Assembly (NCBI GenBank): GCA_017857875.1
Contig: JAFMCH010000014.1
Coordinates: 1 to 36,571 of the forward strand
Length of the DNA: 36,571 nucleotides
Direction of reading: 5' to 3'
DNA from: Actinomycetota bacterium
GTDB taxonomy: Bacteria > Actinomycetota > Actinomycetes > S36-B12
The notes beneath the pieces were generated by a model. It did no database searches. It saw only the letters and a program-made list of their open reading frames with translations, and was not told the origin of the DNA. Below are positions 15,029-36,571 of the stretch, piece after piece; the stretch's first letter is position 1; each line of letters opens with the position of its first letter. The position numbers were made by a program, and so were the translations under genes.

Positions 15029-15168
15029 GACCTCCACGCTCAAGAAGGTACAAACATCCGACTAATTTTGCGAAACGAGATCGGGGTTGCTGTCTTTTCG
15101 TTAGTCTAATGTGTCATATTCCTCACCCAAACATCAGATCTTTAATCCCACAGGGAAAGGTGCCCACC
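15029..15168 (+). promoter_or_regulatory. gap with possible internal promoter
   Basis: This 140-nt gap is the largest within the plus-strand operon and is AT-richer than its surroundings. It contains a near-palindrome CGTTAG-T-CTAATG (15099-15111) sharing the GTTAGT arm with the candidate TetR operator at 12403. It may carry a promoter for the PPDK-like pair. No confident -35/-10 pair was found. AGGGAAAGG (15152-15160) serves as ribosome-binding site for the GTG at 15169. Confidence 0.3.
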
Positions 15169-15786: not shown

Positions 15787-15790
15787 ATCT

Positions 15791-18183: not shown

Positions 18184-18184
18184 A

Positions 18185-19576: not shown

Positions 19577-19590
19577 GTCGATCGCAAAAC

Positions 19591-19632: not shown

Positions 19633-19643
19633 AATAGACCGTG

Positions 19644-21194: not shown

Positions 21195-21214
21195 TTTGTG
21201 TGCACAACCTCTCG

Positions 21215-22172: not shown

Positions 22173-22958
22173 ATGGGCAGCATGATGAGTGGTAAGACCG
22201 TCGTTCTGACGGGGGCGAGTTCGGGTATCGGTAAAGCGGCAATGGAACTCCTGTGCGCCGAGGGCGCCAACGTGGTGGCGTCTGCGCGAACCGCAGATCG
22301 CCTTCAGGCTGCCGTCGACGAGGTGGTGCAGGCGGGTGGTTCGGCGATCGCGGTTGCTGCGGACATGAGCAATGACGAGCAGGTCGGCCGCGTCATAGAT
22401 GCGGCTAAGGCTGAGTTCGGTGGCTTGGATGTGCTGATCAATAACGCAGGGGTCGGTTACGGGTACCGCGATCAACGCCCGAACAGCATGCTTGCGCTCG
22501 TTGAGTCGCCCCTTGAGGATTGGCACCACGTGATGGGAATCAATCTCGATTCCGTCGTATTTGCCTCTCGCAGGGCGCTTCCGGTAATGATCGAGCAGCG
22601 CAGCGGATCAATCGTGAACGTTGCCAGCATCTTGGGCATGGTCGGGCACCACGATGCCCATGCCTATACGACGGCTAAAGGCGCAATCATCAACTTGACA
22701 CGCTCCATGGCAAAGACCTACGGACCATTCAACGTTCGCAGCAACGTGTTGGCGCCCGGATACATCGATACCCCGATGATTGCTGACTACACCGAGTACC
22801 TGAACGCCGATGAGACGCGAGCGGGATGGGGCTGCCCAATGGAGCGCACCGGTACGCCACAGGAGATCGCAAATTCGATTCTGTATCTAAGTTCAGATAT
22901 GTCGACGTACACCAATGGCTTGGTCATGGCCGTTGACGGCGGATTCACGGCCTGCTAA
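22173..22958 (+). CDS. SDR-family oxidoreductase (FabG-like)
   Basis: The 261-aa classical SDR has the cofactor motif TGASSGIG (13-20), NNAG (90-93) and catalytic Ser152, Tyr165 and Lys169 (YTTAKG), ending in GLVMAVDGGFTAC. A somewhat long stretch (VGYGYRDQRPNSMLALVESPLEDW) after NNAG enlarges the substrate region. It probably oxidises or reduces a secondary alcohol/ketone. Very strong ribosome-binding site (GGAGGAGGT). Candidate operator site A lies upstream. The next gene starts 4 nt after its stop, so the two SDRs form an operon divergent from the phosphohistidine module. Arg39 after the second strand suggests NADP (inference). Confidence 0.9.
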   Translation: MGSMMSGKTVVLTGASSGIGKAAMELLCAEGANVVASARTADRLQAAVDEVVQAGGSAIAVAADMSNDEQVGRVIDAAKAEFGGLDVLINNAGVGYGYRDQRPNSMLALVESPLEDWHHVMGINLDSVVFASRRALPVMIEQRSGSIVNVASILGMVGHHDAHAYTTAKGAIINLTRSMAKTYGPFNVRSNVLAPGYIDTPMIADYTEYLNADETRAGWGCPMERTGTPQEIANSILYLSSDMSTYTNGLVMAVDGGFTAC

Positions 22959-22962
22959 CTCA

Positions 22963-23715
22963 ATGTCGGATCCGCGGGTACACATCATTGCTGGTGGCAG
23001 TAAAGGCATCGGGTTAGAGACGGCATTGGCCGTATCAAATCCGGGAGACACGGTGGTGCTCGGATTTCATTCCGATGTCGAGTCAGCAAACAAGGCGGTT
23101 GATCGTTGTCGCGACGAGGGAGTGACGGCTCAACTCCTTCAGGTGGACATGGGTGCGGTTGGCGGCGCCGATGAGATCGTGCGTGCTGCTGTCGAAACCT
23201 CTCTTCCACTTGGTCACATCGTGCACAGTGTGGGCGAGGTGATCCGAGACGAACTGACGAACATGACCCAAGAGCAGTTCGCTCATGCACTTCAAGCCAA
23301 CGGCACTTCACTATTAGACATGGTGCGATGTGCAATGCCGGCCCTGCTTCCGGGCAGCACGGTCTTGTATGTCACCAGCAGAGGCAGTCGATCTGTGTAT
23401 CCGAAATATGGATCGCTCGGGCCCGCGAAGGCGCTTGCCGAGGCTCTCGTTCGGTATTTGGCCGTCGAACTGGCTCCCAAGGGCGTCCGCGTGAATGCGT
23501 TTGCACCAGGTGCGCAGGACACGACCGCGTTGCGTGCAGTGTTCGGTGACGCAACCCCGGATGTTCTCGCGGCAGCGCTGAAGAAGAATCCGCTGGGTCG
23601 ACTGGTTGAACCGGACGACTATCGGCCCCTGGTTCGGTTCATCAGTTCACCGGACGCTTCAATGATTACCGGACAGGTCTTCTACGTTCACGGCGGTGCG
23701 GACCTGCTGTCTTGA
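22963..23715 (+). CDS. divergent SDR with enoyl-reductase-type (Y-x6-K) active site
   Basis: About 250 aa from the ATG at 22963, 4 nt after the previous stop; the longer frame from 22915 overlaps the first SDR. The cofactor motif is AGGSKGIG (10-17) rather than TG-x3-GIG, NNAG is replaced by HSVGE, and the active site is Tyr149-x6-Lys156 (YGSLGPAK), the spacing of FabI/FabL enoyl-ACP reductases rather than the Y-x3-K of classical SDRs. The C terminus (GQVFYVHGGADLL) is also of that kind. It probably reduces an enoyl or keto group with NADPH. Why it is paired with a classical SDR under the same promoter is unknown. Confidence 0.87.
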   Translation: MSDPRVHIIAGGSKGIGLETALAVSNPGDTVVLGFHSDVESANKAVDRCRDEGVTAQLLQVDMGAVGGADEIVRAAVETSLPLGHIVHSVGEVIRDELTNMTQEQFAHALQANGTSLLDMVRCAMPALLPGSTVLYVTSRGSRSVYPKYGSLGPAKALAEALVRYLAVELAPKGVRVNAFAPGAQDTTALRAVFGDATPDVLAAALKKNPLGRLVEPDDYRPLVRFISSPDASMITGQVFYVHGGADLLS

Positions 23716-23716
23716 T

Positions 23717-23740
23717 CTCGGGACCTGACTATTCCCCGAG
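23717..23740 (+). terminator. weak hairpin after SDR pair
   Basis: CTCGGG (23717-23722) and CCCGAG (23735-23740) form a 6-bp stem with a 12-nt loop, followed by TTTGG. It lies between the convergent SDR and carboxyltransferase-like genes and partly inside the latter's 3' end. The stem is short, so this is a tentative call. Confidence 0.25.
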
Positions 23741-25189
23741 TTTGGCGACTGACAGATCGTAGTTTTCTGTGCTGACCCGAAAGTATGGAGTGTTCACTGA
23801 TCGCATGAGTGACCTGATCTGCTCGATCTCGTCAGAACCCATCGGGAATTCCTGACGCACCGGACCAGCTGCCCTCATCGCTGCGAGGTCTGTCTCTGGC
23901 ACGAGGAACCTAAGAATCAATTCGTCGTCGTTGGTGGTGTCGTAGGTGCGTCGAAGTTCGTCAATTGAGGGTTCTTCAGGTGGATTACTTGCCACTTCTT
24001 TCCACCTGGGTTGCTCCATCATCCGATCCATGATGGCCGCGTCAATCGGTGCAGGAGGAGTCCCGTAATAGCCGGCGGCATACATCAAGTTTTCGGTGGG
24101 TACTACTGAGTACCGATCCCCGGTCACGACGTTGAGGACGGCCTGGATTCCGACCAGTTGGCTCACCGGGGTCGCCATGATCGGATATCCAAGCTCACGT
24201 CGTACCCGTCCTGCCTCCTCGAATACCTCATCAAGTCGATGCGACATCTCATACTGGGCAAGCTGCGCCTTGAGCGTTCCAGTCATTCCCCCCGGTACCT
24301 GGTGGGAGATATTCGTCAGGTCGTATTCGGCCGCTTGATTGACCAGATAGCCCATAGCGTTACCCACTCGTTCCATATGATCTGCCACGGCAGGAAACAA
24401 GCTTGTGTCGAGCGAATGGGTGAAACCAAGGACTTCAGCGTTGCGCACCATGACCTCTGTTGATGGCACGGATGGCCCATTCGCCATTGGCCGGCTGGCA
24501 GTGTGAATAACGGACACGCCATGCTGGATTGCTTCGCAGTAGGCCAGTGTCGAGGTGCCCATCAGGTTATTGGAATGCATCTCGACAGGCTTGCCACCAG
24601 CCGCGGCGACAATCTTGGGCACTAACGTGCGGATGCGATCAGGGAGCAATACTCCAGCGGTGTCGTAAAACAAGATGGTGTCGACTCCATCGATCGCTGC
24701 CATGTTGGCAACCTGCTCTGCGAACAGTTCATCGGTGTGAATAGGGGACTGAGTGAAGAACACGGTCCCAGCGATCTCTGAGCCGAATTCTTTGGCTACG
24801 CGAGCAAGTCGATCAATGTGGTGGAAGTTGTAGAGGACGTCGTAGATCCAAAACGATCGGACACCATGACGATTGAGTTGACGCATCCAAGCATCCATCA
24901 GGTCAGGGGGAGTGATTCCCATGCTGACTGCGGCGTTGGAGCGCATCCCACCGCGGGTGGGAGTTCGCGTGATCTGCGCCTGGATGAGGTCTAAGCCGGC
25001 CCAAGGATCCTCACGGCAGAACTTGATGAGCACTTCCATAAACGAAGAAGCAGCCAGATCGATCCGGCTGAAGCCGGTGCGATCGAGAGTTCCGGCGACC
25101 GGCAGTGCATGAGCCGCTTGCATACGCATGCCCCATAGGCTCTGCTGGCCATCGCGCAGGGTCTCATCGAGGAAGTCCAGATGGGGCAT
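23729..25189 (-). CDS. carboxyltransferase-like protein (OadA/pyruvate carboxylase CT family), copy 1
   Basis: About 486 aa from the ATG at 25189 (AAGGAG at 25195-25200; a GTG at 25195 would bury that site). The N-terminal HMGL-like TIM barrel starts with LRDGQQSLWGMRM (Asp13 is the metal ligand), and the C-terminal PYC_OADA domain shows PGGMTGTLKAQL and YPIMATPVSQLVGIQAVLNV. The carbamylated lysine of the family (IKDM in OadA) is Tyr175 (LFYDTAG), and the metal-binding HxH is H205-S-N207. Two active-site ligands are thus changed, so classical pyruvate/oxaloacetate chemistry is unlikely. It has no biotin domain. It is last in the GntR, thiolase, ligase operon and is a paralogue of the protein at 30843. 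It could be a carboxyltransferase for another ketone-like substrate, a lyase, or a non-catalytic subunit. Confidence 0.82.
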   Translation of the reverse strand: MPHLDFLDETLRDGQQSLWGMRMQAAHALPVAGTLDRTGFSRIDLAASSFMEVLIKFCREDPWAGLDLIQAQITRTPTRGGMRSNAAVSMGITPPDLMDAWMRQLNRHGVRSFWIYDVLYNFHHIDRLARVAKEFGSEIAGTVFFTQSPIHTDELFAEQVANMAAIDGVDTILFYDTAGVLLPDRIRTLVPKIVAAAGGKPVEMHSNNLMGTSTLAYCEAIQHGVSVIHTASRPMANGPSVPSTEVMVRNAEVLGFTHSLDTSLFPAVADHMERVGNAMGYLVNQAAEYDLTNISHQVPGGMTGTLKAQLAQYEMSHRLDEVFEEAGRVRRELGYPIMATPVSQLVGIQAVLNVVTGDRYSVVPTENLMYAAGYYGTPPAPIDAAIMDRMMEQPRWKEVASNPPEEPSIDELRRTYDTTNDDELILRFLVPETDLAAMRAAGPVRQEFPMGSDEIEQIRSLMRSVNTPYFRVSTENYDLSVAKLGE

Positions 25190-25191
25190 AA

Positions 25192-26721
25192 TCACTCCTT
25201 GTTGTGTGCGTGTGCAATGAGTTGTTCGCGCAGGGTCGTTTTCAGCACCTTGCCGGCCCCATTTCTGGGTAACTCGGTGATCAGGTGGTACTCCTTGGGG
25301 CGCTTGTAACGGGCCATCATTGACAGGCAGTGTTCGTCGAGGCTGCGTTCAAATCCGTGCGCGTCTTCATCCGGCTGGAGTACGACAAATGCGGCCAGTC
25401 GTTCGCCCCATTCCTCATCCGGGACGCCGATGACCGCAACATCCAGAACACCGGCATGCTGCCTGAGCGTTTGTTCCACCTCGCGCGGGTAAATGTTTGC
25501 GCCACCAGAGATGACTAGGTCTTTGCTGCGATCCAACAGGGTGAGCAAACCTGCATCGAATCGCCCTAGATCACCGGTGAACAGCCATCCATCGCGGAGG
25601 GTTTCCGCAGTTGCCTCTGGGTTGTCAAGGTAACCGGCCATGACCGTCGGGCCCTTGACGATGACTTCTCCAATTTCCCCGTCTTGGACTGTGTTTCCGT
25701 TGTCGTCAACGACGCGCACCTGAGTTCCGATGCGTGGCGCGCCCACGGATTCCAAAGCCGCACGATTGTTTGCGGCAGCAGCCGTGGCGATAGCACGGGG
25801 GCCCATCGCCGTAATCGTGCACGGGGACTCACCCTGCCCGTAGCCGTTCCATAGCCGCGCGCCGAAGGTTTCCATTCCGGCGATGAGGTCTTCGGCGAGG
25901 ACGGGTGCCGCACCGACGAGAACCGTACCCATTCGTTCCACCGGTGCTGCCTTGATTTCCGGTGCGGAACAAAGGCGGCGAAGCATGATCGGAGGAACAA
26001 AGAACGTCATGTTGTCCCGAGTTCTCATAAGCGTTGCGACATGCGCTGGATCCGTACTCGACGGGACAATCTGCGCTGCTCCTTTAGCGATAAAGGGAAG
26101 AGCGAAAAGCCCTGAAGCGTGGCTTTGCAATGCGAGGTGAAGCAAACTTGACCGTTCATCAACCCATTCAACGTCGGCGCAGTAGGCAGTTGTCATGGCC
26201 CACAAATTTGCGTGGGTGAGCCGTGCACCCTTTGGCTTGCCTGTCGTGCCAGAGGTGAAGAAGATCCAGGCATCGTCCTCGGGGCGGCGGTCAACGATGG
26301 GAAGTGGATGGAAACTGCGCTCATGGTCCAGGTTCTCGGCAGTCAAGATACGGATCTTGTCTGGATTGGCGCACACGTCCATGAGTTCGTCGGCTAGGTC
26401 TTCACCAACCCAGGTAAGTTGCGCATCAACGTCGTTGATGATGCTGGCGGCCTCTCGGGCGTGGAGCATGCTGCTCAGAGGTACGGCCACTGCGCCAGCC
26501 CACCAGATTGCGAAGAGTGCTTCGATGTAGTCGGGGCGATTCTTCAGGTAAAGGACGACTCGGTCACCCGGCTTGACGCCAGACTCATGGAGCGCTCCCG
26601 CTCGACAGGAGACCCGGTGTGCGAGTTCACGGTAGTCACAATCTGTCTGGTCATCGACGACGATCGCCGGTTGGTCGGCGAAGACCCGGGCGCTCTCGGC
26701 GAGCGCATGAGCGGTATTCAT
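25192..26721 (-). CDS. acyl-CoA synthetase (AMP-forming), copy 1
   Basis: The 509-aa product is an ANL-superfamily adenylating enzyme: P-loop-like FFTSGTTGKPKGARLTHANL, WNGYGQGESP (A5 region), GWLFTGDLGRFDAGLLTLLDRSKDLVISGGANIYPREVEQ (A7-A8), and the C-terminal catalytic Lys in LPRNGAGKVLKTTLREQL. It activates a carboxylic acid as an acyl adenylate and transfers it to CoA. Its ATGA overlaps the thiolase stop, and its own stop lies 2 nt before the start of the carboxyltransferase-like gene. The order thiolase, ligase, carboxyltransferase-like mirrors the second operon at 30843-35020, which suggests that it activates a carboxylated product (inference). Confidence 0.92.
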   Translation of the reverse strand: MNTAHALAESARVFADQPAIVVDDQTDCDYRELAHRVSCRAGALHESGVKPGDRVVLYLKNRPDYIEALFAIWWAGAVAVPLSSMLHAREAASIINDVDAQLTWVGEDLADELMDVCANPDKIRILTAENLDHERSFHPLPIVDRRPEDDAWIFFTSGTTGKPKGARLTHANLWAMTTAYCADVEWVDERSSLLHLALQSHASGLFALPFIAKGAAQIVPSSTDPAHVATLMRTRDNMTFFVPPIMLRRLCSAPEIKAAPVERMGTVLVGAAPVLAEDLIAGMETFGARLWNGYGQGESPCTITAMGPRAIATAAAANNRAALESVGAPRIGTQVRVVDDNGNTVQDGEIGEVIVKGPTVMAGYLDNPEATAETLRDGWLFTGDLGRFDAGLLTLLDRSKDLVISGGANIYPREVEQTLRQHAGVLDVAVIGVPDEEWGERLAAFVVLQPDEDAHGFERSLDEHCLSMMARYKRPKEYHLITELPRNGAGKVLKTTLREQLIAHAHNKE

Positions 26722-27947
26722 CGCCTGGGTGATTCCAGTATCGTGACGGCGACGGCAGCCTCCTCGACTCCCACAAGACCACCGCTGTTCTCGGCCAAGG
26801 CCAACTTGGCCCCTTCGACCTGGCGGGCACCGGCCTCTCCGCGAAGTTGAGTAACGAGTTCAAAAATTTGGGCGAGGCCCGTTGCTCCGATGGGATGGCC
26901 ACGAGATTCGAGTCCACCTGAGGGATTCACGGGGACACGGCCACCCAGCGCAGTCTCCCCACGCATCGCCGCTAGGCCGCCCTCGCCGTAAGGCACGAGT
27001 CCCATGTGCTCGACTTGCTGAATCTCACCGACGGCCGTTGCATCGTGGACCTCGGCAACATCAATGTCTGAGGGTGCAACCTCAGCGTCGGAGTAGGCGA
27101 GTTGCGCCGTTCGCGGGCTGACATGTTGGGTGACGTCAACGCCATCCCAATTGCCCCCGTGACCAATGCGTTGGGCACGGATCCGAACCGCGCGTTTCGG
27201 ATCGCGCGCGGTGGAAGTGATGACGGCTGCTGCGGCGCCGTCGCTGACAGGGGAGCACATCGGAATAGTCAAGGGCCACACGACTGCTCGTCCAGCGAGG
27301 ACCTCGTCCACGGTGAAAGGTTTTTGATATTGGGCACGAGGATTGTGCACTGAGTGCATGTGGTTCTTTGCGCTGACCGCTGCCAGTTGCGCTTGAGTGC
27401 TCCCGAATCGGGCCATATGGTCTCGCGCAAAAGCGGCGTAGATATCCATAAACACCGTGCGGTTGGCCAGCTCGTCGGCGTCCGTGGGAATAACGGTGTC
27501 TTTCCCCCAGGCGGTGAGTCGCTCAATGCTTTGGTCACGATCTTCGACGTTCCAACTGCCCTCGAAGGCGGCGAGAAGTTCTTCCAGTGGTGCTTGGGTC
27601 ATGACTTCGGATCCAACCGCCAGAGCGGTCCTTGCCATTCCGGATTGAACATACGCCGTGGCGACCTGCATCGCGGTAGTTGCACTGCAGCAAGCATTTT
27701 CGACATTGATGATCGGAATTGGGCGTAGACCTAGCCCGGCAAGTGCCAACTGACCGCGAATGCCATGCTGCCCCCCCATCGCTCCCCAGGTGGCATTCGC
27801 AAACACCACGACGTCAACATCGTTGGCTTCAAGTGATGCATCCGCGAGGGCATCTCGCGTGGCAGCTAGAGCCAGGCTGGCGACCGACTCCTCGCGATGA
27901 CGACCGAATCTGGTCATGCCGACGCCGGTGATCAATGGAGTGGTCAT
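26718..27947 (-). CDS. SCPx-type thiolase / lipid-transfer-like acetyltransferase
   Basis: The 409-aa product belongs to the SCP2-thiolase-like branch: MTTPLITGVGMTRFGRH at the start, the nucleophile Cys in VENACCSATTAMQVA (Cys87 most likely), AEVHDATAVGEI with the conserved His, and GLESRGHPIGATGLAQIFEL. Many members cleave branched or cyclic 3-oxoacyl-CoA, for example in steroid side-chain breakdown, and some need a DUF35 partner, which is not visible here. A GAGAGGA sequence serves as ribosome-binding site. It lies 60 nt downstream of the GntR gene and overlaps the ligase gene. Together with two classical thiolases in the window it points to several C-C cleavage steps. Confidence 0.9.
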   Translation of the reverse strand: MTTPLITGVGMTRFGRHREESVASLALAATRDALADASLEANDVDVVVFANATWGAMGGQHGIRGQLALAGLGLRPIPIINVENACCSATTAMQVATAYVQSGMARTALAVGSEVMTQAPLEELLAAFEGSWNVEDRDQSIERLTAWGKDTVIPTDADELANRTVFMDIYAAFARDHMARFGSTQAQLAAVSAKNHMHSVHNPRAQYQKPFTVDEVLAGRAVVWPLTIPMCSPVSDGAAAAVITSTARDPKRAVRIRAQRIGHGGNWDGVDVTQHVSPRTAQLAYSDAEVAPSDIDVAEVHDATAVGEIQQVEHMGLVPYGEGGLAAMRGETALGGRVPVNPSGGLESRGHPIGATGLAQIFELVTQLRGEAGARQVEGAKLALAENSGGLVGVEEAAVAVTILESPRR

Positions 27948-28007
27948 GAGGGTGGTCCTCTCGGTTGCTGTGGTGACGTTGGTGAGCGCGCGTCAGTGCG
28001 AGTGGGC

Positions 28008-28757
28008 CTATCTCTGTCTAGATACGGTTGCGGGCACGCTGTCGGGCAGGTCGATAAGTAGACCGTCTCCGGGGGGCGCGGCCGAAATTTGGAGGTACTC
28101 CTTGAGCCAACGCTCGGACTCTGAGACGTGAATCGTGGCGGCAGACCGGGCGAGAACTGAGTCGCGGTCGGCGAGTGCATCCAAAATGAGCGAGTGCTGA
28201 GCAAGTGTCATCGTTTTGATTCCGCTTAAGGACGCGCGCCAGATTCGGGCGCGCAATGCCCGAGTCGAAATAGCGTCCAGAATCGAACATAGGCTTGAAT
28301 TGCCTGTTGCGGCGGTTATTTGCGAGTGAAACTGGATGTCGCTCAGCACTAGTTCCCCTGGATCGTGGGCGCTACGCATCGTGGCCAGACTTTCACGGAG
28401 GGATGCCACCTGATCATCGGTGATTCGCTGGGCAGCGAGTGCCGTAGCCGCAGGTTCGAGGAGTTTTCGAACCTCGAACACCTCCACGAGTGTGGAGTCC
28501 TGCATGAGATCAACGACGAATGACAATCCAGAAAGGAGCAGATCAGGCTCCAAGCTTGTCACGTAGGTGCCATCGCCACGGCGTACGTCGAGAACCTTTG
28601 CCTGGCTGAGAGCCTTGACCGCCTCGCGCAATGAACTGCGAGAGATGCCCAACATGGAGGCAAGTTCCTGTTCTGGCGGGAGCCGGTCCCCCGGTGCCAT
28701 CTGTCCTTCGGTAATCAAATCCCGAATCTTCATGATGGCAGCGTCGGTTACGCTCAT
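28008..28757 (-). CDS. GntR-family regulator, FCD (FadR-like) subfamily
   Basis: The 249-aa product has an N-terminal winged helix (about 5-68: ITEGQMAPGDRLPPEQELASMLGISRSSLREAVKALSQAKVLDVRRGDGTYV) and a C-terminal FCD ligand-binding domain whose helices carry the conserved His (QFHSQITAATGN). FCD regulators sense carboxylic acids or acyl-CoAs and usually repress. AGGGAGGGG is the ribosome-binding site. The gene is divergent from the biotin carboxylase operon; candidate operator site B lies between them, and similar sites A and C are found in the promoter region at 21914-22172. It is probably autoregulated and the local regulator of all three transcripts (inference). Confidence 0.92.
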   Translation of the reverse strand: MSVTDAAIMKIRDLITEGQMAPGDRLPPEQELASMLGISRSSLREAVKALSQAKVLDVRRGDGTYVTSLEPDLLLSGLSFVVDLMQDSTLVEVFEVRKLLEPAATALAAQRITDDQVASLRESLATMRSAHDPGELVLSDIQFHSQITAATGNSSLCSILDAISTRALRARIWRASLSGIKTMTLAQHSLILDALADRDSVLARSAATIHVSESERWLKEYLQISAAPPGDGLLIDLPDSVPATVSRQR

Positions 28758-28854
28758 GGGTGTCCCCTCCCTAGCGAGCAGTTGGCCCGCAAATTAGGGG
28801 GATATCTTCTCGCGAATCGTTGTGCACCGGTCAGCACACCGCTAGTCTGCCACA

Positions 28855-28872
28855 AACATATGATGTCTAACG
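28855..28872. promoter_or_regulatory. candidate GntR operator (site B)
   Basis: AACATATGATGTCTAACG differs from site A (22104-22121) only at the two central positions. The outer ACAT/ATGT arms are inverted repeats. It overlaps the predicted start point of the biotin carboxylase operon and lies in the divergent promoter region of the GntR gene. Confidence 0.6.
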
Positions 28873-28888
28873 ACAGATCACCGATTTC

Positions 28889-28906
28889 TAGCGGGAATTC
28901 CCGCTA
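28889..28906. repeat. 18-bp perfect palindrome in the 5' leader
   Basis: TAGCGGGAATTCCCGCTA reads the same on both strands with no mismatch. It lies downstream of the predicted promoter and 27 nt before the ribosome-binding site of the biotin carrier gene. It could be a second operator for a dimeric regulator or an RNA hairpin in the leader. It is unrelated in sequence to sites A-C. Confidence 0.6.
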
Positions 28907-28947
28907 AGGGCTCGGCAAAGGAGTCGACCATGAGGAGGAAAGAGCAG

Positions 28948-29451
28948 ATGTCACTCACCCCGGAGGATATTCGCGCACTCGTCAGCGCCTTTGAAACATC
29001 AGGCTGGGATGAGTTGTCGCTGCAGTTTGGTGAGACACGCCTGGACCTTTCTCGGTCCGGCCGGCCCCCGCAACGAGCCTCCGGATCATCGAATGACGTG
29101 TCGGTGCCGAGAGTTGAAGCGGCGCCACCCGTGGTGGCCTCGGTTGCCACCGCTGCCGAAACCACGCCGCGGTCGATTGCGCAGCCGTCTCCGGCGGCAC
29201 TACCTGCAGGCCACCAGGTGACATCGCCCTCGCTGGGACTGTTCTGGCGCTCCCCTCAGCCAGGTGCACCGGAATTCGTCGACGTTGGCCAGGTCGTCGA
29301 TGCTGAGGACACGGTATGCATCGTTGAGGTCATGAAACTTATGAATCACGTGAAGGCGGGTGTGAGCGGCACGGTTATCGCAATCAATGCGGATAACGGC
29401 GCGATGGTCGAATTTGGCCAGGCGCTCGTCGTCATCGATCCGGCACACTGA
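28948..29451 (+). CDS. biotin carboxyl carrier protein (AccB-like)
   Basis: About 167 aa from the ATG at 28948, which has AGGAGG at 9 nt; the ATG at 28930 precedes the ribosome-binding site and is rejected. The N-terminal 35 residues (LTPEDIRALVSAFETSGWDELSLQFGETRLDLSR) match AccB-type carriers, followed by a Pro/Ala-rich linker (about 38-90) and a biotinyl domain: GLFWRSPQPGAPEFVDVGQVVDAEDTVCIVEVMKLMNHV. Lys130 is the biotinylation site; the residue two before it is Val rather than the usual Ala (EVMKL versus EAMKM). It carries carboxybiotin between the carboxylase and the transferase. First gene of the plus-strand operon, 3 nt before the carboxylase. Confidence 0.92.
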   Translation: MSLTPEDIRALVSAFETSGWDELSLQFGETRLDLSRSGRPPQRASGSSNDVSVPRVEAAPPVVASVATAAETTPRSIAQPSPAALPAGHQVTSPSLGLFWRSPQPGAPEFVDVGQVVDAEDTVCIVEVMKLMNHVKAGVSGTVIAINADNGAMVEFGQALVVIDPAH

Positions 29452-29454
29452 TTC

Positions 29455-30846
29455 ATGCCGCCGCTTCAGCGCGTACTCGTTGCCAACAGGGGAGAAATCG
29501 CTGTTCGGATCATCCGAGCATGTATTGATGAAGGTGTTGAAAGCGTCGCCATAGTCTCTGAGGCGGATCGAGAGAGTATGGCAGCGTATTTGGCTGATCA
29601 GGTCGTCTGTATCGGGCCAGGCAATGCGGCTGAAAGCTACCTAGACCTGAATCGGGTAATTTCAGCAGCCGTCCTGACCCAGTGCGATGCGTTGCATCCG
29701 GGCTACGGATTTCTTGCAGAGAGACCAGAGTTGGTTGAGATCTGTAACGAAAACGGCATTGTCTTTATCGGTCCTTCGGCAGACGCGATTCGACGCGGCG
29801 GAGACAAAGTTCAGGCAAGAGCGCTCGCCCAGAGTCTCGGGATTTCGACTGGTGCTGGGAGTTCCGCTCTTGTCGACGTTGATGAGGCTGAGCTGATCGC
29901 CAACCAGGTTGGTTTCCCCGTTCTTATGAAGGCTGCGGCCGGTGGCGGTGGCCGCGGCATGGTCCTGGTCGAAGACGCAAGCGACATAAGGGAGAGGTTC
30001 GCTTCGGCGAGCAATGAGGCACTTCAGGCTTTCGGTGACGGACGCTTGTATATCGAACGTTTCATTAGCCGGGCTCGCCATGTCGAGGTGCAGATTCTCG
30101 CGGATTCACACGGAAATGTTGTTCATCTTGGTGAGCGAGACTGCACCGCGCAGCGTCGGTATCAGAAGGTCGTCGAAGAGGCACCGGCGAACTTTGTTGC
30201 ACCAGCAATTCGTGCTCAACTTCATGACGCGGCAATAAAGTTGGCACGAGGTCTGAATTATGTTGGCGCTGCGACCGTGGAGTTCATTGTTGATGCACAG
30301 ACGGGTGACTTCTCATTTCTTGAAGTCAATACGCGCGTTCAGGTCGAGCATCCGGTCACGGAAATGCTAACGGGAATCGACATCGTCCGGGAGCAACTGA
30401 GGATCGCAGGTGGACAACCGCTGTCGTTTGGCCAAAGCGATGTGGTCTTAAGCGGACACGCGATTGAGTGTCGGTTGAACGCTGAAGATCCCGAGGCAGA
30501 GTTTCTTCCTTCACCTGGTCGGGTCACGCGTTGGATTCCTCCCGTGGGAGAGGACATCAGGGTTGACAGTCACGTATACGGCGACTACGTGATTCCTCCG
30601 TACTACGACTCGATGATTGCGAAAGTGATTGCCCACGGCGACGATCGCACCAGGTGCCTTGCGAAAATGGATAGGGCGTTAGGGCACATGGTGATCGATG
30701 GTGTGTCTACTAACCGAGACTTTCTGCGAGACGTAATTCAACATCCGGATTTCGTTGCGGGGGATCATCACACTCGTTGGGTTGAACAGGAATTTCTCGC
30801 CGGTTGGGCCGATGGCCAAGGCGATAATCGAAGGGAAATAGCGTGA
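29455..30846 (+). CDS. biotin carboxylase (AccC-like)
   Basis: The 463-aa stand-alone biotin carboxylase has all expected motifs: VLVANRGEIAVRIIRAC, HPGYGFLAE, the ATP-binding glycine loop MKAAAGGGGRGM, RDCTAQRRYQKVVEEAPA, and EVNTRVQVEHPVTEMLTGIDIV with the catalytic Glu/Arg. It makes carboxybiotin on the carrier protein from bicarbonate and ATP. The active site looks intact, so the carboxylase half of the complex is functional, in contrast with the altered transferase partners. It ends in a GTGA overlap with the carboxyltransferase-like gene. A pure housekeeping acetyl-CoA carboxylase role is unlikely, since the transferase is of the OadA and not the AccD type. Confidence 0.95.
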   Translation: MPPLQRVLVANRGEIAVRIIRACIDEGVESVAIVSEADRESMAAYLADQVVCIGPGNAAESYLDLNRVISAAVLTQCDALHPGYGFLAERPELVEICNENGIVFIGPSADAIRRGGDKVQARALAQSLGISTGAGSSALVDVDEAELIANQVGFPVLMKAAAGGGGRGMVLVEDASDIRERFASASNEALQAFGDGRLYIERFISRARHVEVQILADSHGNVVHLGERDCTAQRRYQKVVEEAPANFVAPAIRAQLHDAAIKLARGLNYVGAATVEFIVDAQTGDFSFLEVNTRVQVEHPVTEMLTGIDIVREQLRIAGGQPLSFGQSDVVLSGHAIECRLNAEDPEAEFLPSPGRVTRWIPPVGEDIRVDSHVYGDYVIPPYYDSMIAKVIAHGDDRTRCLAKMDRALGHMVIDGVSTNRDFLRDVIQHPDFVAGDHHTRWVEQEFLAGWADGQGDNRREIA

Positions 30847-32303
30847 CGGAGATCAAGTTCATCGACCAGTCGCTTCGTGATGGTCAGCAAAGCCTGTGGG
30901 GCATGCGCATGCGCGCCGGGCACAGTCTGCCCGTTGCAGCCGACATCGATCGAATGGGCTACAGCGTTGTTGACTTCACGGGGTCGTCATTATTTGAAGT
31001 ACTCGTTCGGTATTGCCAGGAAAATCCGTGGGAGACAGTGGATCTTGTTCGTGGAGCCATGCCCACGGCGCGTATGCGAGCCGGTGCGCGAGCCAATGCG
31101 ATCGTAGGCATGGGGCTCACGCCAAAGTCAATTCTGGAACTCTGGGTCCGCACGCTTGCCAAGCACGGTATTGGGAGTTTCTGGATTTTTGATTGCTTGT
31201 TCAACCTCGACCAAATGAAGTGGATGTCCGGTATTGCACAAGATGCCGGAATGCACGCTGCCCCGCAGGTGATGTTTGCCGAATCACCCGTCCACACTGA
31301 CGATTACTACGCGAATATTGTCGCCGAGATGGCGACGTGGGGTACGGAATCGATCATCCTCGGTGATGAAGCCGGTGTGTTGACAGCCGAGCGAGCTGCC
31401 AGTTGGGTACCGAAGATGGTTGAGGCCGCTTCGGGTGTGCCACTGGAAGCGCATTTCCACAACACCACGGGGATCTCCACGCTCAATTACATTACGGCGG
31501 CGAAGGCGGGAGTGCATATCCTGCATACGGCGATGGGGCCAATGGCTAATGGGCCATCCATGCCATCGGTCACCGTCACCGCGGACAACATGCGCAGGCT
31601 CGGTTTCGATGTCAACCTCGACGAGTCCGCGGTCCCGGAGATTTCCGAGCATTTTCGTCGAGTGGCCGAAGCCGAGGGGTACACCCTTGGCGCACCGCGC
31701 GAATACAACCTGGCGCATTCCCATGCCCAACTGCCCGGCGGAATGACCGGAACCCTCGTCAATCAGTTACGACAGTATGGAATGGAAGATCGCTACGACG
31801 AACTGATGGAAGAGATCGGTGTCGTGCGCGAGGAGATGGGCTACCCGATCATGGCGACGCCATACTCCCAATTAGTCGGAATCCAGGCGCTGCTCAATCT
31901 AGTTAATGATGAACGCTATTCCGTTTTTCCTGATGAGAACCTGATGTACCTTGCCGGTCACATGGGGCCCATCCCCGGTGTCGTAGCCGAAGACGTACAA
32001 GATCGAGCCTTCGGTAGCAAGCGCGGTAAGGAATTCCTCGACTGGGAACCGCCGCAACCTACTCTTTCTGAAATCCGCCATCAGTTCGGCGAGAACATGA
32101 GTGATGAGGAACTCCTGTTGAGATTCCTCATTCCAGGTCCTGATGTTGATGCGATGTATGCCGCGGGTCCGGCAAAGACGCAACTGGACTACCCCGAGAC
32201 CCCGGGTGCAATGTTGGCTCGGGAATTGATGCAGTCCACGACTGCGCGCTATGTGAATTACCAGTCAGCAGGTGTGGACATGACGCTTCAACGCAATGCG
32301 TGA
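30843..32303 (+). CDS. carboxyltransferase-like protein (OadA/pyruvate carboxylase CT family), copy 2
   Basis: The 486-aa product starts at a GTG overlapping the biotin carboxylase stop, which makes it the probable transferase of that complex. The N-terminal barrel carries LRDGQQSLWGMRM (Asp13) and EAHFHNTTG with intact HxH (His204, His206). The PYC_OADA domain shows PGGMTGTLVNQLRQYG and YPIMATPYSQLVGIQALLNL. The family's carbamylated lysine is Gly174 (ILGDEAG in place of IKDMAG), so metal binding must differ. It has no fused biotin domain, like the transcarboxylase 5S subunit. The acceptor is therefore probably not pyruvate; a ketone or other enolisable molecule is possible (inference). It is the paralogue of 23729-25189, with better preserved ligands. 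Confidence 0.85.
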   Translation: MTEIKFIDQSLRDGQQSLWGMRMRAGHSLPVAADIDRMGYSVVDFTGSSLFEVLVRYCQENPWETVDLVRGAMPTARMRAGARANAIVGMGLTPKSILELWVRTLAKHGIGSFWIFDCLFNLDQMKWMSGIAQDAGMHAAPQVMFAESPVHTDDYYANIVAEMATWGTESIILGDEAGVLTAERAASWVPKMVEAASGVPLEAHFHNTTGISTLNYITAAKAGVHILHTAMGPMANGPSMPSVTVTADNMRRLGFDVNLDESAVPEISEHFRRVAEAEGYTLGAPREYNLAHSHAQLPGGMTGTLVNQLRQYGMEDRYDELMEEIGVVREEMGYPIMATPYSQLVGIQALLNLVNDERYSVFPDENLMYLAGHMGPIPGVVAEDVQDRAFGSKRGKEFLDWEPPQPTLSEIRHQFGENMSDEELLLRFLIPGPDVDAMYAAGPAKTQLDYPETPGAMLARELMQSTTARYVNYQSAGVDMTLQRNA

Positions 32304-32342
32304 TTTGATGCCAGTGCACGGGGGAATTTAGGGAGGACATGG

Positions 32343-33827
32343 ATGGACATCGGGAGTCTCATTCGCAATGCTGCCAAGCGTTTTGGTGATGCGACTGCAT
32401 TGGAATCTGAGGAGCGCACGGTCAGTTTCCGCGAGTTTGACGCTGCTACCGATCGATTGGGTAATGACCTTCTCAACTCAGGTCTAGTTCCTGGAGACCG
32501 TGTTGGCGTGATGCTTCCTAACGGAATCGAATGCCTGGCCGTTTATTATGCGCTTGCCAAGGCAGGGCTGGTGCGCGTCGCACTCAACGAAAAGGACACC
32601 GAAGCACAGAACATCTTCAAAATTGATGATGCTTCCTGTCGAGCCGTGATTCACAGTGGAGGTGCCCCGACGAGTAGCCCAACTCTTGAAGTGGTCACAT
32701 CGCTTGACTGGATTGATGCAACGGCGTGGACCGGTCCGACCCAGCCGTGTTATCACCCCCGTGATCCCGAAGCTCCCTATCGGCTGGGTTACACAGGCGG
32801 TACAACAGGTGATCCAAAAGCGGTCACCCTGACGATGCGCGGTGAGACGGCCGAAATCTCAGCATTCTTGATCGATTTGATGCCCGACATCGGACCAGGT
32901 GACACCATGTTGCATGCGGCTCCGATCATTCACGCGAGTGGGGCATTCTTCCTGCCGGCATTTGCTAAAGGTGCCCGTAACCGCATCATGACAAAGTTCG
33001 ATGCATCGCGATGGCTTGAGGAACTGGAGCGAAGTCGCGCGTCGTATAGTTTCCTCGTCCCGACGATGATTGCCCTGGTCTTGGACACACCCGGAGTGCA
33101 AGAAGTTGATGCATCGAGTTTGCGCCGGTTATGTTGGGGCGCCTCGCCAATCCCACCAACGGTGGCCGAGCGAGCGCAGGCTGTTTTTGGCAAAGTCTTG
33201 GCTCAAACGTACGGCCAGGCGGAAGCCCCCATGGCGATCACTGTGCTGCAGCCTGACGAACACGATCGTGTCGGTTCAGCCGGTCGCGGCTACACGTTGA
33301 TGGAAGTCGCCGTCATGGATGAGGATGGGCGTTTCCTACCCGAGGGCGAACCCGGTGAAGTGGTCACTCGGGGACAGGTGTTGATGAAGGGTTACTGGAA
33401 CAAGCCGGAACTGACCGCCGAGACGATTCGTGACGGTTGGTTGCACACAGGAGATATCGGCTACCTCGATGAAGAGGGTTACCTGTATCTCGTTGATCGC
33501 AAGAACGACAAGATCATCAGCGGCGGCTCCAACGTGTATCCACGTGAGGTGGAAGACGTCCTTAACGCTCATCCTGCAGTTCGTGAGGCAGCGGTTGTGG
33601 GTATTCCAGATGACACGTGGGGTGAACTCATCCATGCGGTTGTCGCTGTTCGACAGGAGGCCACCTCTGAGGAGATCTTGGCTTTTGTCGCCGAGCGCGT
33701 GCCGAATTACAAGCGACCACGGTCGCTGGAGATATGGCCGGAGTTGCCTAAAAGCCATGCAGGCAAAATCTTGCGACGCGCTGTCCGGCAAAAGGAAACC
33801 GAGCGATTAGGAACTCTGAGTCAGTGA
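32343..33827 (+). CDS. acyl-CoA synthetase (AMP-forming), copy 2
   Basis: The 494-aa ANL-superfamily enzyme has LGYTGGTTGDPKAVTLTMRG, AQTYGQAEAPMAITVL, GWLHTGDIGYLDEEGYLYLVDRKNDKIISGGSNVYPREVEDVLNAHP and C-terminal LPKSHAGKILRRAVRQKE with the catalytic lysine. It forms acyl-CoA through an acyl adenylate. In the phosphate-binding loop the common S/T-SGTTG-PKG reads YTGGTTGDPKA, a modest variation. AGGGAGGA lies 5 nt before the ATG. It follows the transferase gene by 39 nt and overlaps the thiolase gene by GTGA. Its position between a carboxylase and a thiolase suggests that it activates the carboxylation product (inference). Confidence 0.93.
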   Translation: MDIGSLIRNAAKRFGDATALESEERTVSFREFDAATDRLGNDLLNSGLVPGDRVGVMLPNGIECLAVYYALAKAGLVRVALNEKDTEAQNIFKIDDASCRAVIHSGGAPTSSPTLEVVTSLDWIDATAWTGPTQPCYHPRDPEAPYRLGYTGGTTGDPKAVTLTMRGETAEISAFLIDLMPDIGPGDTMLHAAPIIHASGAFFLPAFAKGARNRIMTKFDASRWLEELERSRASYSFLVPTMIALVLDTPGVQEVDASSLRRLCWGASPIPPTVAERAQAVFGKVLAQTYGQAEAPMAITVLQPDEHDRVGSAGRGYTLMEVAVMDEDGRFLPEGEPGEVVTRGQVLMKGYWNKPELTAETIRDGWLHTGDIGYLDEEGYLYLVDRKNDKIISGGSNVYPREVEDVLNAHPAVREAAVVGIPDDTWGELIHAVVAVRQEATSEEILAFVAERVPNYKRPRSLEIWPELPKSHAGKILRRAVRQKETERLGTLSQ

Positions 33828-35020
33828 GCGGGTTGTCGGGTCGTCCCGCCTATGTCGTCGACGTCGTGCGCACCCCCTTTGCCCGCGGTCGAACCGATGG
33901 AGCGTTGGCGACACGTCACCCCGTTGACCTGCTAGCGATCGTTTTGAATGCGCTGATCGAGCGTCAGGGACTTGACCCGGTGGTGGTGGATGATCACATA
34001 TCCGGATGTGTTCAACAGGTTGGCGAGCAGTCGGGAAACATTGCCCGCCACGCTGTCCTGGCCGCTGGCTGGCCGCATTCAGTTCCGGGTGTGACGCTGG
34101 ATCGTAAATGCGGATCATTCCAACAGTCTGTGCATTTTGCCGCTCAGGCAATTGCGACCGGTGTGATGGATGTCGTCGTGGCCAGTGGGGTTGAAATGAT
34201 GAGCCGCATTCCCATGAAAACCAATCGTCTCGGCCGGGATGAACTTGGACCGATGTTTGCGCAGGAAATGCCTGAAGGTTTGATTTCCCAAGGGATTTCG
34301 GCCGAACTCATTGCTTCGCGCTGGGAACTCAGCCGCGGGAAACTCGACGCGTTTTCCGCACGTTCTCACCAGCGAGCGGCCCGGGCTCGTGACTCGGGTT
34401 ATCTATCTGATGCGATCGTCCCTGTCGAGGTTGATGGAGCTACCGTTACGGCGGATGAAGGAATTCGAGATACAACAACCGAAGAGATTCTCAAGACGCT
34501 ACGTCCAGCATTTGAGCGCGCTGACATGCTCGAACGCTTCCCGCAGATTGATTGGCGTGTCACGGCCGGCAATTCCTCTCAGGTCACTGACGGTGCTGCG
34601 GCGACGTTGGTGGTGTCTGAGGAGGCGTTAGAGCGTTATGGATTGACTCCACGAGGGAGAATCGTAGGTATGAGCGTGGTGGGTGACGATCCGATCATGA
34701 TGCTGACAGGCATTATTCCTGCCACGCAAAAAGTGCTGCAGCAGACCGGAATACGCCTCGAAGACATCTCCGTAGCTGAAATAAACGAGGCCTTTGCTTC
34801 AGTCGTCCTAGCGTGGTGCGAGGAGTACCCGATGGACGAGGGACTTGTGAATCCCTGGGGCGGTGCGATTGCATACGGTCATCCGGTTGGAGCATCCGGC
34901 GGTCGACTGCTGGCGAATCTGCTTGGATTCCTGGAGCACTCCAAGGGCAAGTATGGGCTCTGGTCGATGTGTGAAAGCGGCGGAATGGCAAACGCGACGA
35001 TCTTGGAGAGTGTGCGATGA
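33824..35020 (+). CDS. thiolase (acetyl-CoA acyltransferase)
   Basis: The 398-aa thiolase starts at a GTG overlapping the ligase stop. The active site is complete: Cys96 in DRKCGSFQQSVHFAA, His353 in GHPVGASGG and Cys383 in MCESGGMANATI. SFQQS replaces the more usual SG-QA after the nucleophile, as in the related enzyme at 8168 (GSSQQA). It would cleave a 3-oxoacyl-CoA. Together with the upstream ligase and carboxylase it completes a carboxylate, activate, thiolyse series. The stop overlaps the SDR start (ATGA). Confidence 0.93.
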   Translation: MSGLSGRPAYVVDVVRTPFARGRTDGALATRHPVDLLAIVLNALIERQGLDPVVVDDHISGCVQQVGEQSGNIARHAVLAAGWPHSVPGVTLDRKCGSFQQSVHFAAQAIATGVMDVVVASGVEMMSRIPMKTNRLGRDELGPMFAQEMPEGLISQGISAELIASRWELSRGKLDAFSARSHQRAARARDSGYLSDAIVPVEVDGATVTADEGIRDTTTEEILKTLRPAFERADMLERFPQIDWRVTAGNSSQVTDGAAATLVVSEEALERYGLTPRGRIVGMSVVGDDPIMMLTGIIPATQKVLQQTGIRLEDISVAEINEAFASVVLAWCEEYPMDEGLVNPWGGAIAYGHPVGASGGRLLANLLGFLEHSKGKYGLWSMCESGGMANATILESVR

Positions 35021-35778
35021 GCGAGCACGAATCTGGTCAATCGAGGGTTGTACTGGTGACGGGTGCGGCCGCTGGCATCGGTGCTGCCTGCGCGGTGGCT
35101 TTGGCGGGCCGCGGTGACGTCATCATTGCGGTCGATCGAGATGAGGCCATGCTCGCTAAGCAGGTTGCCGCACAGCGGGCTCTGGGCCACGTTGTCGACC
35201 CCTATGTGGTGGACGTGTCAGATAGTCAGGCGGTCAATGACCTCGTAGACACCATTGTGAGCACGCGTGGACGGCTTGACTGTGCTGTCAACAATGCGGG
35301 GATCAGTGGAGCGCAACTACCAATCGGTGAGCTCAGTGATGAGGAATGGGCTGAAACCCGAGGCATCAACTTTGATGGTGTGTTCTATTGCTTGCGAGCT
35401 GAGCTGCGGGCTATGCAAGATGCCGGCTCGGGTGCCATCGTCAATATGGCCTCAATCTTGAGTGTGGTCGCCTGGCCCAGTGCTGCGGCATATACCGCGG
35501 CGAAGCACGGCGTCCTAGGTTTGACGCGAAGTGCGGCGGTGGACTATGCCGGCCAAGGTTTGCGCATAAATGCCGTAGGACCGGGATTTATTGGTACAGA
35601 ACTGGTTCGGTCGGCGCTTGACGAGGCGACGCTCGCCCAGCTCGCTGGGCTTCATCCCCGTGGGAGCATGGGAACGCCAGAGGATGTTGCGGCACTGGTC
35701 GCGTTTTTACTGTCGCCTGAATCCGTCAACATCAATGGTGCATATTTTGCGACTGACGGAGGCTTTACGGCGCGATGA
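35017..35778 (+). CDS. SDR-family oxidoreductase
   Basis: The 253-aa classical SDR has VTGAAAGIG (14-22), NNAG (92-95) and catalytic Ser146, Tyr159, Lys163 (YTAAKHG), ending in INGAYFATDGGFTAR. Asp40-Arg-Asp42 after the second strand favours NAD. A dehydrogenase of a secondary alcohol to a ketone, or of 3-hydroxyacyl-CoA, would fit the operon. Its ATG overlaps the thiolase stop, and its stop overlaps an in-frame ATG of the next gene. It is closely similar in style to the SDR at 22173 (both end in DGGFTA), which may be a paralogue. Confidence 0.91.
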   Translation: MSEHESGQSRVVLVTGAAAGIGAACAVALAGRGDVIIAVDRDEAMLAKQVAAQRALGHVVDPYVVDVSDSQAVNDLVDTIVSTRGRLDCAVNNAGISGAQLPIGELSDEEWAETRGINFDGVFYCLRAELRAMQDAGSGAIVNMASILSVVAWPSAAAYTAAKHGVLGLTRSAAVDYAGQGLRINAVGPGFIGTELVRSALDEATLAQLAGLHPRGSMGTPEDVAALVAFLLSPESVNINGAYFATDGGFTAR

Positions 35779-35795
35779 CTGATGATGGAGATGTC

Positions 35796-36571
35796 ATGAG
35801 CAATAACGAAAGTATGCCCTCTGGTTTCAGCATGCCGTTGGGTGCTTCGCTGTATCCCGCACCGCCCTATGAGTTCAGGCGAGCTCAGCAGTCGTGGGTG
35901 GCCTTCGAAGTAGATCCACAGGTGATCGCCGAACTTCTTCCTCCGGGGGTTGAGCCTGATAGCGACCCGGCGGTATGTGAGGCATGGGTGTGTTGGTACC
36001 CGTGGACCACGTTTGGTCCGTATCACGAGTCGTACATCATGGTCAGGGTTGTGGTGGACGGTGTTCGTTATTGGTACCAGCCGGTCATCTTCACCGATAG
36101 TGAGGTGCCGTTGGCGGCAGGACGCGAAATTTGGGGTTTCGCGAAAAAACTTGCCGTTCAGCAATGGGATTGGGGAGGCGCCGCTCGGGGCGGAACTCGC
36201 AATGAGCAACTCCTATTCACCGTGGAACGACCCGCTGGCCAGCGGATCATGACGTATACATTCGCGCCAGAGCGTCCCTTTGATGCGGCCGAGCGTGAGT
36301 CACTTCCGGTGCTGAGTTTCCGACACATACCACCCAGCGAAGAAGGAGCACCTCCCGCTGCGAGTGAATTGGTCCGGCTGGATGTGCAGGGCCACCTCTA
36401 TCACGCAGCTGATGGCACTCCTGAGTTTTGGACAGGGCGAGGCTCAGTGAGTTTCGACGCCCGAAGCGTGATTGACCCGTGGCATCTGTTCACGCCGCAG
36501 CGAATAATCGGCGCCTATTGGGCAACTCTTGATTTCAGTTTGGGGCTCGGTACCGTCGTCAAGAATTACCT
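35796..36571 (+). CDS. acetoacetate decarboxylase family protein, cut by window end
   Basis: The open frame runs without a stop to the last base, giving about 258 residues so far. AAGREIWGFAKKLAVQQW carries the family segment with two lysines that align with the Schiff-base lysine pair (compare GREVFGEPKK at 5622-6416). I prefer the ATG at 35796, with GGAG 5 nt before it, over the ATG at 35775 that overlaps the SDR stop. Many Trp and Tyr residues (CWYPWTTFGPYHESY) shape the substrate side. As last visible gene of the biotin carboxylase operon it would act on a beta-keto acid, the very kind of compound a ketone carboxylase makes; it may be an aldolase-type ADC-like enzyme instead. Incomplete at the 3' end. 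Confidence 0.82.
   Translation, partial: MSNNESMPSGFSMPLGASLYPAPPYEFRRAQQSWVAFEVDPQVIAELLPPGVEPDSDPAVCEAWVCWYPWTTFGPYHESYIMVRVVVDGVRYWYQPVIFTDSEVPLAAGREIWGFAKKLAVQQWDWGGAARGGTRNEQLLFTVERPAGQRIMTYTFAPERPFDAAERESLPVLSFRHIPPSEEGAPPAASELVRLDVQGHLYHAADGTPEFWTGRGSVSFDARSVIDPWHLFTPQRIIGAYWATLDFSLGLGTVVKNY

What the first reader, a model, noticed from the sequence alone, without database searches (positions are those of the whole stretch)
23729..35020. Biotin carboxylase with two carboxyltransferase-like paralogues that lack the family's metal-binding lysine
Seen: stand-alone carrier (28948) and carboxylase (29455) genes are canonical, but both OadA-type transferase proteins have lost the carbamylated lysine (IKDM becomes LGDE with Gly174 in copy 2, FYDT with Tyr175 in copy 1), and copy 1 has HxN instead of HxH. 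Known: in transcarboxylase 5S, OadA and pyruvate carboxylase this lysine and the HxH bind the catalytic metal. Inference: the complex carboxylates something other than pyruvate, perhaps a ketone, and the two copies differ in substrate, or one is a structural or lyase subunit. I know of no described carboxylase with this make-up.
Basis: partly seen in the sequence, partly recalled or inferred. Interest (0 to 1): 0.75.

Follow-up and report, generated by a model that had tools for sequence, protein, structure and literature searches.

The report
Lysine-less biotin carboxylase pair
A lake-type actinobacterium carries two variants of the enzyme part that normally adds CO2 to pyruvate, both lacking a metal-holding lysine that every relative outside their branch keeps; they form an overlooked, widespread branch that probably adds CO2 to some other ketone so that it can be broken down.

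Summary
CT2 (30843-32303 +) has Gly174 and CT1 (23729-25195 -) has Tyr175 where pyruvate carboxylase, OadA and transcarboxylase 5S have the metal-binding lysine. CT1 also has HxN for HxH. The alignments are ungapped there. It is not a local oddity: among 148 homologues this column is Lys 52/52, Glu 11/11, Gly 14/14 or Tyr 71/71, and a tree built without these columns needs a single loss of lysine (SH-aLRT 99). Tyr comes with His→Asn (70/71); Gly comes with a new Glu two residues on (14/14). Both are true carboxyltransferases by domain content, and the CT1 model has that fold (VIA Z 46 to pyruvate carboxylase, 32 to aldolases). The Tyr type is the only such transferase beside carrier and carboxylase in most Proteobacteria sampled, so it is not merely a structural partner. 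CoA ligases, thiolases, a truncated PPDK and phosphatases surround them, resembling the known phosphorylate-carboxylate-thiolyse ketone routes (Hpe/Acv/Xcc), whose close relatives keep the lysine. Most likely: a biotin-dependent carboxylase for a non-pyruvate ketone, with two transferases sharing one carboxylase. Substrate, metal content and phosphorylation are unproven. New variant of a known kind.

The parts
30843..32303 (+). CT2: OadA/PycB-type carboxyltransferase, Gly174 at the lysine site, HFH kept, Glu176 two residues on (LGDEAG)
   Evidence: PF02436 and PF00682 over cut-off; alignments; GTGA overlap with the carboxylase gene
31362..31370 (+). CT2 codons Gly174-Asp175-Glu176 (the lysine site)
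31452..31460 (+). CT2 His204-Phe205-His206 (metal HxH kept)
23729..25195 (-). CT1: OadA/PycB-type carboxyltransferase, Tyr175 at the lysine site, HSN instead of HxH; likely start ATG at 25189
   Evidence: AlphaFold model pLDDT 89, Z 46 to pyruvate carboxylase beta
24665..24667 (-). CT1 Tyr175 codon (lysine site)
24569..24577 (-). CT1 His205-Ser206-Asn207 (HxN)
28930..29451 (+). biotin carboxyl carrier protein (VMKLM)
   Evidence: TIGR00531 over cut-off; motif
29455..30846 (+). biotin carboxylase
   Evidence: NF006367 over cut-off
32343..33827 (+). AMP-forming acyl-CoA ligase 2
   Evidence: PF00501, PF13193; its type sits in the Tyr-type cassettes of Proteobacteria
33824..35020 (+). thiolase 2 (FadA/AtoB type)
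   Evidence: TIGR01930 over cut-off; its type sits in the Tyr-type cassettes
35017..35778 (+). short-chain dehydrogenase
35775..36569 (+). acetoacetate-decarboxylase-family protein (runs to the window end)
   Evidence: PF06314
25192..26721 (-). AMP-forming acyl-CoA ligase 1
   Evidence: PF00501, PF13193
26718..27947 (-). SCP-x/lipid-transfer type thiolase 1
   Evidence: PF22691, PF00108
28008..28757 (-). GntR/FCD regulator between the two divergent operons
   Evidence: PF00392, PF07729; FCD regulators also in the Haliea cluster
22915..23715 (+). short-chain dehydrogenase conserved beside CT1
15109..15786 (+). 225-aa protein without Pfam match, conserved directly upstream of the truncated PPDK
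15692..17554 (+). truncated pyruvate phosphate dikinase (ATP-binding and phospho-histidine domains, no pyruvate-binding barrel)
   Evidence: PRK05878 over cut-off; PF01326, PF00391
19644..21194 (-). 516-aa protein without Pfam, NCBIfam or PDB match, conserved beside the phospho-histidine domain protein; possible phosphate-acceptor subunit
   Evidence: confident model (pLDDT 85, pTM 0.88) with no clear PDB match
21215..21913 (-). PEP-utiliser mobile (phospho-histidine) domain protein
   Evidence: PF00391
4313..5071 (-). Y_phosphatase3 phosphatase; its type is also in the Rhodococcus cassette (L111)
   Evidence: PF13350

Best explanation
CT1 and CT2 are active carboxyltransferases of a biotin-dependent ketone carboxylase, served by one shared carrier and one shared carboxylase. 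Shown: fold, domains, gene set, and a single loss of lysine defining a conserved clade. Inferred: the carboxylase makes carboxybiotin from bicarbonate and ATP; each transferase moves the CO2 to the alpha carbon of a non-pyruvate ketone; the resulting beta-keto acid is activated by the adjacent CoA ligase and split by the adjacent thiolase. By analogy with the Hpe pathway, a dikinase-like set may first phosphorylate the substrate and a phosphatase later remove the phosphate. At the metal site I predict that the Glu type uses Glu in place of carbamylated lysine, that CT2 (Gly) still binds a metal through Asp13, His204, His206 and the new Glu176, and that CT1 (Tyr175, Asn207) binds metal weakly or not at all and stabilises the enolate by other residues.
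For: Column counts K52/E11/G14/Y71, with linked changes Glu176 14/14 in the Gly type and His→Asn 70/71 in the Tyr type. One loss of lysine, SH-aLRT 99, on trees made without these columns. The catalytic Asp, Gln, Arg83 and the biotin-side Thr (S. aureus PC D572, Q575, R644, T908 by my own numbering from memory) stay invariant in the lysine-less types. Fold Z 46 to PC beta and 42 to OadA and 5S against 32 for aldolases. Carrier 39/41 and thiolase 38/41 near Tyr types. Canonical pyruvate carboxylase elsewhere in the genome. Biotin synthase gene in the S. estronivorans cluster. Biotin ligase present. Kinase and phosphatase genes beside the cassettes. HpeCBA precedent for carboxylation of a phosphorylated methyl ketone (PMC9618137).
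Against: No activity, metal or substrate data exist. Only 25 of 41 Tyr-type loci have the truncated PPDK nearby, so phosphorylation cannot be general. The 516-aa protein shows no detectable kinship to the HpeH acceptor region. No AlphaFold coordinates were returned, so the metal-site geometry is reasoned from strand position, not measured.
Confidence: 0.6

Rival explanations
1. CT1 and CT2 form one heteromeric transferase in which CT1 is a structural, non-catalytic subunit.
For: All Nanopelagicales loci with full flanks and Geodermatophilus carry both side by side, and CT1 has lost two metal ligands.
Against: In most Proteobacteria sampled the Tyr type is the only OadA-like transferase of this kind, with its own carrier and carboxylase. 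Three CT1 cassettes of Solirubrobacterales/Thermoleophilia lie on other contigs than CT2. The Tyr type keeps the catalytic Asp, Gln, Arg and Thr.
Confidence: 0.1
2. It is an ordinary Hpe/Acv/Xcc-type hydroxyacetophenone carboxylase that has drifted.
For: Same gene logic: carrier, carboxylase, transferase, ligase, kinase and phosphatase.
Against: The Hpe-, Acv- and Xcc-type transferases keep Lys and HxH and form other branches; the kinase acceptor protein is different.
Confidence: 0.12
3. They are lyases or aldolases of the HMG-CoA lyase / DRE-TIM type that only look like carboxyltransferases.
For: LGD in CT2 resembles the LGDT motif of HMG-CoA lyase (my knowledge); weak hits to lyase and aldolase models.
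Against: PF02436 carboxylase domain present, Z 46 against 32, constant pairing with carrier and carboxylase.
Confidence: 0.06
4. They are pyruvate carboxylases or oxaloacetate decarboxylases that use another metal site.
For: Best family hits are PycB and OadA; Arg83 and Gln16 kept.
Against: Scores fall below every curated cut-off (311-313 against 402; 266-272 against 756). A canonical pyruvate carboxylase exists in the genome. Arg of FRxFD is replaced by an invariant Trp in all lysine-less types.
Confidence: 0.06

Closest known systems
HpeCBA phospho-hydroxyphenylethanone carboxylase, Rhodococcus rhodochrous GD02 (PMC9618137)
   Same: three separate proteins (carrier, carboxylase, OadA-like transferase); clustered with dikinase-type kinase, phosphatase and CoA ligase; carboxylates a ketone other than pyruvate
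   Different: its relative in Rhodococcus sp. JS3073 keeps Lys and HSH and lies on another branch; cleavage there is by a hydrolase, not a thiolase; the GD02 protein itself was not in hand
XccBCA (Aromatoleum aromaticum EbN1) and AcvCDE (Sphingobium SYK-6)
   Same: biotin-dependent carboxylases of hydroxyacetophenone type, same three-part build
   Different: Acv-like plasmid genes and the probable EbN1 gene keep YIKDP and HSH
Transcarboxylase 5S, OadA and PycB carboxyltransferases
   Same: fold, PF02436 domain, catalytic Asp, Gln, Arg and Thr
   Different: no metal lysine; CT1 also lacks the second His; no fused biotin domain; invariant Trp101, Trp114, Arg79 and His228 in the lysine-less clade
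Glu-type transferases on Rhodococcus plasmids (L111, L146, L148) and in Intrasporangium (L105)
   Same: same lysine-less clade, same invariant residues
   Different: Glu at the lysine site and HxH kept; uncharacterised as far as I could find

Membership tests
OadA/PycB/5S-type carboxyltransferase | TIM-barrel carboxyltransferase fold with the conserved C-terminal carboxylase domain | tested here: met
   PF00682 and PF02436 over cut-off for both; CT1 model Z 46.3, rmsd 2.3, 432 residues to 5ks8_D
OadA/PycB/5S-type carboxyltransferase | metal-binding (carbamylated) lysine | tested here: not met
   Gly174 and Tyr175
OadA/PycB/5S-type carboxyltransferase | metal-binding HxH | tested here: inconclusive
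   CT2 has it (HFH); CT1 does not (HSN)
OadA/PycB/5S-type carboxyltransferase | score above the curated cut-off of a named pyruvate/oxaloacetate family | tested here: not met
OadA/PycB/5S-type carboxyltransferase | activity on pyruvate or oxaloacetate | not testable with these tools
   needs purified complex
Hpe/Acv/Xcc ketone carboxylase | separate carrier, carboxylase and OadA-like transferase genes | tested here: met
Hpe/Acv/Xcc ketone carboxylase | transferase within the Hpe/Acv/Xcc branch (Lys kept) | tested here: not met
   separate clade, SH-aLRT 99
Hpe/Acv/Xcc ketone carboxylase | HpeHI-like kinase and phosphatase in the cluster | tested here: inconclusive
   truncated PPDK, mobile domain and phosphatases are present; acceptor protein not recognisably HpeH-like
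Hpe/Acv/Xcc ketone carboxylase | carboxylation of a phosphorylated hydroxyphenyl ketone | not testable with these tools
   assay needed
HMG-CoA lyase / DRE-TIM aldolases | lyase domain without the PYC_OADA domain, closest fold among lyases | tested here: not met
   PF02436 present; aldolases Z 32, carboxyltransferases Z 46

The most novel reading that the evidence does not exclude
The Tyr/Asn type is a metal-free biotin carboxyltransferase that enolises a ketone with Tyr and Arg/His side chains instead of a metal. It occurs in many Alpha-, Beta- and Gammaproteobacteria and Actinomycetota and opens an unrecognised route for carboxylating hydrophobic ketones (invariant Trp pair), in part of them after phosphorylation by a dikinase with a new type of acceptor subunit.
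Probability: 0.27. Interest if true: 0.75.

Novelty: new variant of a known kind. Interest (0 to 1): 0.55.

Why it matters
The OadA-type carboxyltransferases whose mechanism is known use a metal held by a carbamylated lysine. A large natural clade that has replaced it in three fixed ways (Glu, Gly with a new Glu, Tyr with His→Asn) gives a ready series to ask how much of the chemistry needs the metal. Members are annotated as pyruvate carboxylase subunit B or simply carboxyltransferase, so a probable ketone-degradation route in lake Actinobacteria, sphingomonads, roseobacters and Rhodococcus is easily misread as central carbon metabolism.

Tried and rejected
Shifted lysine: rejected, the columns are invariant in each class. 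Recent duplication of CT1 and CT2: rejected, they fall in different clades. CT1 as structural subunit: unlikely, see rivals. Kinship of the 516-aa protein to the JS3073 HpeH-like kinase or to anything in the probable EbN1 genome: none found. Foldseek and VIA-align gave no clear PDB match for it (best Z 3.0); a weak match does not show that the fold is new. Literature searches for a biotin-dependent ketone carboxylase found only the Hpe/Acv/Xcc group; the library lacks the 5S and XccBCA papers. I considered estrone, phytone and benzophenone-derived ketones as substrates because of host species; no evidence decides between them, so I left the substrate open.

Full report
WHAT IS THERE. The window is a contig of a Candidatus Nanopelagicales-type actinobacterium: the nearest named record is a Nanopelagicales MAG with the same locus, CT2 99% identical. 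Two operons diverge around a GntR/FCD regulator (28008-28757). To the right: biotin carrier, biotin carboxylase, CT2, CoA ligase, thiolase, short-chain dehydrogenase and an acetoacetate-decarboxylase-family protein. To the left: SCP-x-type thiolase, CoA ligase and CT1. So one carrier/carboxylase pair stands with two transferases, each beside its own ligase and thiolase.

CHECK OF THE OBSERVATION. CT1 and CT2 are 45% identical to each other. Both carry the carboxyltransferase barrel (PF00682) and the C-terminal carboxylase domain (PF02436). HMMER alignments to pyruvate carboxylase beta and OadA run without a gap through the lysine block. The lysine is Gly174 in CT2 and Tyr175 in CT1; CT2 keeps HFH, CT1 has HSN. 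Orthologues from three genera of the same family keep these states.

A CLADE, NOT AN ACCIDENT. One scan of named genomes brought 75 loci, mostly Sphingomonadales, Rhodobacterales and Gammaproteobacteria, plus Geodermatophilus, Solirubrobacterales and others; plasmid searches added Rhodococcus and annotated relatives. In 148 homologues the column is Lys 52/52, Glu 11/11, Gly 14/14 or Tyr 71/71. The sample was drawn in part with peptide patterns that cover this site in the Gly and Tyr types, so the class sizes are not frequencies in nature; the Glu and Lys types came from searches with whole proteins. Each class has linked changes: the Gly type always has Glu two residues on (14/14), the Tyr type always Thr there (71/71), and the second His of HxH is Asn in 70/71 Tyr-type proteins. 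On trees made without the lysine and HxH columns, the lysine-less proteins lie on one side of a branch (SH-aLRT 99) and the four states need three changes, the least possible; Gly and Tyr types are each one clade, and the Glu type falls between. The parsimonious course is one loss of Lys, with Glu as a plausible early substitute, then Gly or Tyr. The lysine-less clade shares invariant residues not fixed in the others: Arg79, Trp101, Trp114, His228, Glu202 and Thr304. It keeps the Asp, Gln, Arg and Thr that I know as catalytic in pyruvate carboxylase.

STRUCTURE. The CT1 model (pLDDT 89, pTM 0.85) matches pyruvate carboxylase beta at Z 46.3, OadA at 42.4 and 5S at 41.8, with aldolases of the same superfamily at 32. 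Coordinates were not returned, so the metal site itself could not be measured. CT2 was not folded; its fold is inferred from sequence.

SURROUNDINGS. In 41 Tyr-type loci with enough flank, a carrier is near in 39, a carboxylase in 33, a thiolase in 38, a CoA ligase in 28, and a truncated pyruvate phosphate dikinase in 25, usually with a phospho-histidine mobile-domain protein and a 516-aa protein of no known family (21 each). A 225-aa protein sits directly upstream of the dikinase in many. The window holds the same genes at 15109-21913. Phosphatases of different kinds sit by: Y_phosphatase3 in the window and Rhodococcus, SurE in Haliea. The Sphingobium estronivorans cluster includes a biotin-synthase-like radical SAM protein. 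A second Tyr-type context in Novosphingobium, Sphingobium and Erythrobacter lacks the dikinase and has acyl-CoA dehydrogenases, an enoyl-CoA hydratase, thiolase-like proteins and an OB-fold protein, so phosphorylation is not general. CT2-type genomes mostly also have a Tyr type, but on separate contigs in Solirubrobacterales and Thermoleophilia.

WHAT IT WORKS LIKE. The nearest described logic is the Hpe pathway of Rhodococcus rhodochrous GD02: kinase, then a biotin-dependent carboxylase acting on the phosphorylated methyl ketone, then a phosphatase, CoA ligase and cleavage (PMC9618137). The paper names XccBCA and Acv as homologues. Their relatives here (Rhodococcus sp. JS3073, Pseudomonas and Sphingobium plasmids, and a Rhodocyclaceae genome whose 4,296,230-base contig I take, from memory, for strain EbN1) all keep the lysine and HxH. 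So the window's system works like these but is not one of them.

MECHANISM, WITH LIKELIHOODS. That both are active biotin-dependent transferases for a non-pyruvate, ketone-like substrate: about 0.6 for the whole statement. That CT2 still binds metal through Asp13, His204, His206 and Glu176: about 0.5, inferred from the strict coupling of Gly174 with Glu176 and the usual same-side orientation of residues i and i+2 in a strand. That CT1 is metal-free: about 0.3. That phosphorylation precedes carboxylation in this organism: about 0.4.

NOVELTY. Separate-subunit biotin ketone carboxylases are known; a lysine-less branch of the transferase was not found in the held literature. New variant of a known kind.

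Noticed in passing
19644-21194 (-): 516-aa protein with no Pfam, NCBIfam or PDB sequence match; found in 30 other loci at 45-99% identity; confident AlphaFold model with no clear PDB match. A similar stretch lies behind a mobile domain in a Rhodococcus PEP-utilising protein (27% identical).
   Followed up: partly
15109-15786 (+): Conserved protein of about 200 aa without Pfam match, directly upstream of the truncated PPDK in many loci.
   Followed up: partly
L113 (Rhodococcus sp. JS3073 plasmid): An Hpe-like cluster in which the gene after the carrier is the carboxylase and the next the transferase. The masses given for HpeB (49.3 kDa) and HpeA (57.4 kDa) in PMC9618137 would fit the same order, so the two names in its Table 1 may be swapped. 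Not verified on GD02 itself.
   Followed up: no
L165 (1396-2859 -): A Tyr-type transferase from a Rhodocyclaceae-family genome in which the first His of HxH is also lost (ISHN), a further step in the erosion of the metal site.
   Followed up: no
L186-L188, L190, L191 (Rhodococcus plasmids, Thermoleophilia): Several Glu-type transferases per genome or plasmid, some beside an acyl-CoA dehydrogenase, suggesting a family of differently targeted carboxylases.
   Followed up: partly
1829-3172, 7095-8216 (-): Flavin monooxygenase and luciferase-like monooxygenase near the cluster, a possible second route for ketone breakdown.
   Followed up: no
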